Positions 3,203 through 4,992 of a stretch of 64,000 nucleotides of DNA are shown here, in pieces. Source of the stretch: Desulfonatronospira thiodismutans ASO3-1 (GTDB lineage Bacteria; Desulfobacterota; Desulfovibrionia; Desulfovibrionales; Desulfonatronovibrionaceae); the NCBI RefSeq assembly GCF_000174435.1, contig NZ_ACJN02000001.1:857658-921657 (forward strand), given 5' to 3'. A model generated the notes under the pieces. It made no database searches. It worked only from the letters and a program-made list of their open reading frames with translations, and was not told where the DNA came from. How positions within the stretch are numbered: position 1 is the stretch's first letter; each line of letters begins with the position of its first letter. Position numbers and translations under genes: made by a program.

Positions 3203-3447
3203 ATATACACAAAAAATAGTAACCATTTAAACCTGGAGAATGACTTTTTGCAGGTAAATTATTGACTTGCAAAGCGGCGGGAAGAGAAAACAGGTGGACA
3301 TAAATACTGGTTCGAGGTAATATTAACCTTGTTTTGTAGACTGTCTTCAACCGTAACCATTCAGGGTGCCGCAATCACGCCTCTGGCGTGACTGGGGACA
3401 GTCCCCGCGACACCTTTCCTGCACAATTAAATTATGACAAACGCTAA

Positions 3448-3721
3448 GGGATTAGAAAAATACTGATATACCGCCATAGTGATGCTTTGCCCGCAACAAT
3501 GAAGAGAAGAGTTTTTTGACAGGATGAACAGGATTAAGAGATGGATTAAGAGAAAATTTTTTTGTCCTGGCCGGAAGCCAGGCCAAAAGGTAATCACTCC
3601 ATCTATGCCTGCCACGCGTCTTTAGCGTGGTTAATCCTGTCTAAAGATTCTTGTTTTTTGTAAAAGGCTTTCAACGGTTAAGTCACTGACAGTAACGGTA
3701 TATTGGTATTTTGAACATCCC
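3448..3721. mobile_element. MITE-like element with 26-bp imperfect TIRs and TAA target duplication
   Basis: Terminal inverted repeats 3448-3473 and 3696-3721 match at 20 of 26 positions (shared blocks GGGAT, AAAATAC and ATATACCG). TAA flanks both sides (3445-3447 and 3722-3724), and removing one TAA plus the element rejoins the two halves of the family E repeat. No transposase is encoded. The interior holds a shortened family A copy. Confidence 0.75.
3475..3690 (+). repeat. Family A element, internally deleted copy A4
   Basis: It shares with other family A copies the GCTTTGCCCGCAAC end, TTTTTGACAGGATGAACAGG, the GTCCTGGCCGGAAGCCAGG hairpin, GGTAATCACTCCA and TTCTTGTTTTTT. The central long-stem segment is replaced by a short CCACGC/GCGTGG hairpin. 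Its ends are degenerate (CTGA in place of CTAA on the right). Confidence 0.7.
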
Positions 3722-3866
3722 TAAGTTGTGTGAACCTTCAAAGATAGCACTTAGCGGGGACAGTCCCCAGACCTTGTGTTAACTTCGCGCCTTCAGGCTT
3801 CATGGTTAACAACTTTTCTCAATCATCAAAGCCAGTCCCCTGGCAACACAGTTAAAAGGATGATGT

Positions 3867-4807: not shown

Positions 4808-4992
4808 CCTGAAAGTTTACCATCTCGACGTTCCAGGGGAACCGGCCAGGGGACAGTCCCCGCGACACCTCTACTGCACAAAATAACCTGACAAACGCGA
4901 AATTGTGTGAACCTGCTCAGTTAGTGCTTAGCGGGGGACAGTCCCCAGGCCTGGTGCCAGGGACTAAAACTGAGTACCCCCTGAATGCTTAC
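4808..4992 (+). repeat. Family E element, intact copy E1, with family F termini
   Basis: Two GGGGACAGTCCCC palindromes (4849-4861 and 4934-4946) enclose GCGACACC...TTGTGTGAACC. The outer edges carry CCTGAAAGTTTAC (left) and CCCCCTGAATGCTTACG (right), the family F motif. The stretch 4728-5075 holds no gene apart from this and the hairpin at 4739. Confidence 0.8.

What the first reader, a model, noticed from the sequence alone, without database searches (positions are those of the whole stretch)
3394..3768. Second nested composite: a TIR element with TAA duplication interrupts family E and carries a shortened A
Element 3448-3721 has 26-bp imperfect inverted ends and TAA on both sides; deleting it rejoins family E as in the intact copy at 4849-4946. 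Its 3-bp TAA target duplication is of the type made by some IS5-group transposases, and inside it lies a deleted family A copy.
Basis: seen in the sequence. Interest (0 to 1): 0.55.

Follow-up and report, generated by a model that had tools for sequence, protein, structure and literature searches.

The report
ISAzo13-type MITE carrying another repeat
A short gene-less jumping element, whose ends match a little-studied bacterial transposon family (ISAzo13), has landed inside one repeat while carrying a piece of another; a related bacterium still has the same site without the insertion.

Summary
Window 3448-3721 (274 bp) has 26-bp inverted ends (20 of 26 identical) and TAA on both sides. It sits inside a family E repeat and holds a truncated family A copy. 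A relative (Desulfonatronospira sp. CSSed11_143, G006) has the same upstream flank and the same E copy without the element and with a single TAA: 258 bp, 95.7%, gap-free across the junction. A third genome (G002) lacks both E and the element.

The IS5 attribution is not supported. The closest ends on a transposase-bearing element are those of a 1,315-bp ISAzo13-family IS in a Chlorobiota MAG: one end is 24/26 identical, the TSD is TTA, and the transposase matches PF07592/NF033519. An ISAzo13 IS in another Desulfobacterota genome and a decayed one in G006 carry related ends. The window's own genome has no PF07592 match.

Best reading: a non-autonomous ISAzo13-type element (MITE), moved in trans by a transposase now absent from this genome. 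Seven of seven complete copies (four in G000, three in G006) share the same junction with A, so A was captured once and then spread as cargo. Known kind of thing; the tie of a MITE to ISAzo13 was not found in print in my searches.

The parts
3448..3721 (+). Non-autonomous ISAzo13-type element (MITE), 274 bp, with no transposase of its own
3448..3473 (+). Left terminal inverted repeat
   Evidence: 24 of 26 identical to one end of the L077 ISAzo13 IS
3696..3721 (-). Right terminal inverted repeat
   Evidence: 20 of 26 identical to the left end
3445..3447 (.). TAA target-site duplication, left copy
   Evidence: single TAA at the empty site in G006
3722..3724 (.). TAA target-site duplication, right copy
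3484..3691 (+). Passenger: family A copy without its first 9 bases and with an internal deletion
3394..3447 (+). Left part of the interrupted family E copy (GGGGACAGTCCCC palindrome 3394-3406)
3725..3768 (+). Right part of the interrupted family E copy (palindrome 3756-3768)
4849..4946 (+). Intact family E copy used for comparison

Best explanation
3448-3721 is a non-autonomous miniature element of the ISAzo13 type. An ISAzo13-family DDE transposase acting in trans bound its GGGAT...TACCG ends, excised or copied the DNA between them, and joined it to a T(A/T)A target inside a family E repeat, duplicating the 3 bp. An ancestor of the element had earlier received a family A repeat; deletion fused its remainder to the left end, and the composite then spread as one unit. 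Shown: TIRs, TSD, empty site, multiple copies, shared A junction, ISAzo13 ISs with related ends. Inferred: transposase recognition in trans, how A got in, and loss of the transposase source from this lineage.
For: Empty site in G006: flanks joined with one TAA match 258 bp at 95.7% without a gap. Four complete copies in G000, all with matching TAA or TTA duplications, and three in G006, two with matching TSDs. L077 (Chlorobiota MAG): a 1,315-bp IS with TTA TSD, one end 24/26 identical to the window's left end, transposase PF07592 E 3.2e-56 and NF033519 E 2e-48 (165 bits, below that model's whole-protein cut-off of 200, the gene being split in two frames). G345:C171: an IS whose transposase is 64% identical to that one, PF07592, end GGGATAAAGAAATTACAAATTTACCG, TAA on both sides. 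G006:C90: decayed ISAzo13 with ends 20/26 and 21/26 to the left end. PMC10045372 (passages) says ISAzo13 and eukaryotic Zator both give 3-bp TSDs; three IS-length ISAzo13 loci from Desulfobacterota and three from named cyanobacterial plasmids show TAA or TTA.
Against: No ISAzo13 transposase in the window's genome (0 PF07592 matches), so no active partner is shown. The other end of the L077 IS is only 16/26 to either MITE end. Two elements in G006 lack a matching TSD: the C428 copy reads TAA/TTA, and the decayed C90 IS has TTA on one side and TAA on the other (read). G189 and G350 have similar ends but no PF07592 match. No TWA-flanked GG-ended pair of IS length was found for most ISAzo13 loci tested: 3 of 31 phylum loci and 3 of 9 plasmid loci gave one; many are fragments. 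The L077 end pattern alone would be expected by chance several times in that collection (my estimate).
Confidence: 0.88

Rival explanations
1. An IS5-group element (ISL2/IS1031-like, TNA targets, recalled) supplied the transposase and the ends.
For: A 3-bp T(A/T)A duplication also fits that group (recalled).
Against: None of the 13 PF01609 places in the own genome has ends within 5 mismatches of the MITE ends or a TWA/GG end pair; PF13586 has no match. ISs with related ends carry ISAzo13 transposases. Other IS5-type families such as PF13359 were not searched.
Confidence: 0.05
2. The structure arose by recombination or stepwise insertion and deletion between repeats, not by transposition; the TIRs and TAA are coincidental.
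For: The region and genome are rich in repeats.
Against: 0 of 1000 shuffles reach the observed TIR score (best 17 against 20); four independent G000 loci share the same two ends with 3-bp duplications; exact empty site.
Confidence: 0.02
3. Family A, not the TIR unit, is the mobile part, and the TIR sequences are merely its target.
For: A has about 40 places elsewhere without these ends.
Against: The TSD, the empty site and the repeated unit all coincide with the TIRs, not with A; A inside lacks its first 9 bases in the complete elements.
Confidence: 0.04

Closest known systems
ISAzo13 family insertion sequences (PF07592, NF033519)
   Same: GG-starting ends, TACCG at the inner side of the TIR in the nearest subgroup, T(A/T)A 3-bp duplications (3-bp TSD also in PMC10045372)
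   Different: No transposase gene; 274 bp instead of about 1.3 kb; interior comes from family A
Bacterial MITEs and mosaic non-autonomous transposons such as TIMEs (PMC4133298, seen only in the search listing)
   Same: Short, non-coding, TIR-bounded, thought to move in trans, able to carry foreign DNA
   Different: TIMEs are Tn3-derived; here the ends are ISAzo13-type and the cargo is another dispersed repeat
Zator, the eukaryotic counterpart of ISAzo13 (PMC10045372 and PMC5718144, passages)
   Same: Related transposase family and 3-bp TSD according to those papers
   Different: Eukaryotic; no sequence comparison made here

Membership tests
MITE | Short element with TIRs and TSD | tested here: met
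   274 bp, 20/26 TIR, TAA TSD
MITE | No transposase gene | tested here: met
   274 bp can encode at most about 90 aa; no ORF of 100 aa or more overlaps 3448-3721
MITE | Several dispersed copies | tested here: met
   4 complete copies plus one solo end in G000; 24 end-pattern hits in G006, 2 in its reversed control
MITE | Insertion shown by an empty site | tested here: met
   G006:C428
ISAzo13-type (non-autonomous derivative) | Ends match those of a transposase-bearing ISAzo13 element | tested here: met
   24/26 with one end of the L077 IS; 19-21/26 with G345 and G006:C90 ends; the other L077 end only 16/26
ISAzo13-type (non-autonomous derivative) | 3-bp target duplication | tested here: met
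   4 of 4 complete copies in G000, 2 of 3 in G006
ISAzo13-type (non-autonomous derivative) | Transposase source in the same genome (not strictly defining) | tested here: not met
   0 PF07592 matches in G000; a decayed copy exists in the related G006
ISAzo13-type (non-autonomous derivative) | Ends bound and cut by an ISAzo13 transposase | not testable with these tools
   Needs an experiment
IS5 group | Matching ends on an IS5-group element | tested here: not met
   0 of 13 PF01609 loci in G000; PF13586 absent; limited to these two families and this genome

The most novel reading that the evidence does not exclude
ISAzo13-type ends act as a carrier for unrelated dispersed repeats: a founder captured a family A fragment, and descendants keep collecting other hairpin repeats between the ends (complete copies run from 239 to 594 bp), so one transposase family spreads repeats that belong to another mobility system.
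Probability: 0.45. Interest if true: 0.4.

Novelty: new member of a known kind. Interest (0 to 1): 0.3.

Why it matters
It ties an orphan repeat to a specific, little-studied transposase family, the bacterial counterpart of eukaryotic Zator, and gives a relative order of events: no E, then E, then E plus the element. It also offers a small natural substrate for testing ISAzo13 transposition, and shows how dispersed repeats can hitch-hike on a second mobile system.

Tried and rejected
IS5-group origin: rejected for PF01609 and PF13586 in the own genome. Chance TIR: rejected. Viral contigs: no hit for the end pattern. The inverted-repeat finder on 3394-3768 gave nothing, because the TIRs differ in the middle. 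The pair scan also gave L196 (begins inside the transposase gene) and L127 (269 bp, not IS length); I left both out of the count of ISAzo13 ends. A link of families E and A to the own genome's Y1 transposases was looked at (10 loci of 31 matches): scattered motifs only, not pursued.

Literature: 'ISAzo13' alone gave 10 papers, 'ISAzo13' with 'MITE' one, whose passages do not link the two. I read passages only of PMC9208149, PMC10045372 and PMC5718144, nothing in full. That no MITE has been tied to ISAzo13 in print rests, open-licence PMC only.

Full report
Observation. The window is G000:C1:857658-921657 of a 4.1-Mb genome in five contigs; its genus includes Desulfonatronospira sp. CSSed11_143, whose contigs carry the same matches as G006. 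At 3448-3721 lie 26-bp inverted ends, 20 of 26 identical, with TAA on each side. In 1000 dinucleotide shuffles of 3394-3768 the best comparable end pair scored 17 of 26. The end pattern occurs twice in the window and never in 100 shuffles.

Insertion. Flanks joined with one TAA match G006:C428 over 258 bp at 95.7% without a gap through the junction, so G006 keeps the empty site within the same E copy and the same upstream flank. The G006 contig ends inside E, and a match to the gene that follows in the window lies elsewhere on that contig, so orthology rests on the upstream side. In G002:C195 the two flanks of E are contiguous, with about 30 bp in place of 424: neither E nor the element is there. 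The inferred order is no E, then E, then E plus element.

Copies. G000 holds nine end matches with up to 3 mismatches and none for the reversed control: four complete elements, of 274, 239, 516 and 594 bp, and one solo end. The four are flanked by TAA/TAA, TTA/TTA, TAA/TAA and TAA/TAA. G006 gives 24 end hits against 2 in its control; three complete elements were read, with TSDs TAA/TTA (mismatch), TAA/TAA and TTA/TTA. Of the 17 ends listed for G006 loci, 15 are next to TAA or TTA; I left the decayed IS end of L098 out of that count. Single or partial ends occur in G010 (same family) and G025 (same order) with a different interior.

Cargo. In six of the seven complete elements a match to A starts at element position 37 or 38, corresponding to position 10 or 11 of A. 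For the seventh, G006_C428, the four matches printed start further in, but its first 70 bases are nearly identical to the window's and show the same junction. The A set used had 24 extracted copies. This points to one founder. Family A itself has about 40 other places in G000, and E has 42 matching pieces.

Partner. A genome-contig scan for the end pattern returned 23 stretches, 15 of them from the CSSed11_143 MAG. One of the other eight, L077 (Chlorobiota MAG), is the end of a 1,315-bp element with TTA on both sides whose two overlapping frames match PF07592 and NF033519. One end is 24/26 identical to the window's left end, the other only 16/26. I estimate that the pattern alone should hit a collection of that size several times by chance, so the case rests on the whole element and on two further finds: G345:C171, an ISAzo13 IS (64% identical transposase; PF07592) with a 19/26 end and TAA on both sides, one terminal base changed; and a decayed ISAzo13 in G006:C90, about 3 kb from a MITE copy. 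In one search, 5 of 395 Desulfobacterota genomes had ends with up to 2 mismatches, G000 included; of the other four only G345 has a PF07592 match. In one search, 33 of 395 genomes have a PF07592 match; G000 has none.

Family comparison. Six IS-length ISAzo13 loci gave TAA or TTA duplications with GG-starting ends: L100, L106 and L111 of 31 loci from this phylum and its relatives, and L197, L198 and L199 of 9 plasmid loci, besides L077. PMC10045372 states that ISAzo13 and Zator make 3-bp duplications (passage). None of the 13 PF01609 places in G000 has such ends. The element is therefore filed as a non-autonomous ISAzo13-type MITE. Movement in trans is inferred.

Noticed in passing
L077 6986-7130 and L171 around 2208: The ISAzo13 transposase of this subgroup is split into two frames in both a Chlorobiota and a Desulfobacterota genome, with a run of eight A followed by C near the junction in both: a candidate programmed frameshift.
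   Followed up: partly
G000 genome: 31 matches to the Y1 (IS200/RAYT) transposase family, alongside about 40 copies each of families A and E; which enzyme moves A or E is not settled.
   Followed up: partly
L041 (G000:C1:321400-322900): This MITE copy sits between sequences that look like the two ends of another A-type repeat, so the nesting may also occur the other way round.
   Followed up: no
L084 (G006:C428) 259-751: A second, larger MITE composite lies directly beside the flank that holds the empty site.
   Followed up: partly
L182 1370-1526 and L187 1370-1526 (G350): 157-bp elements with similar ends and TAA duplications in a genome without a PF07592 match: possibly another ISAzo13-type MITE family.
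   Followed up: no
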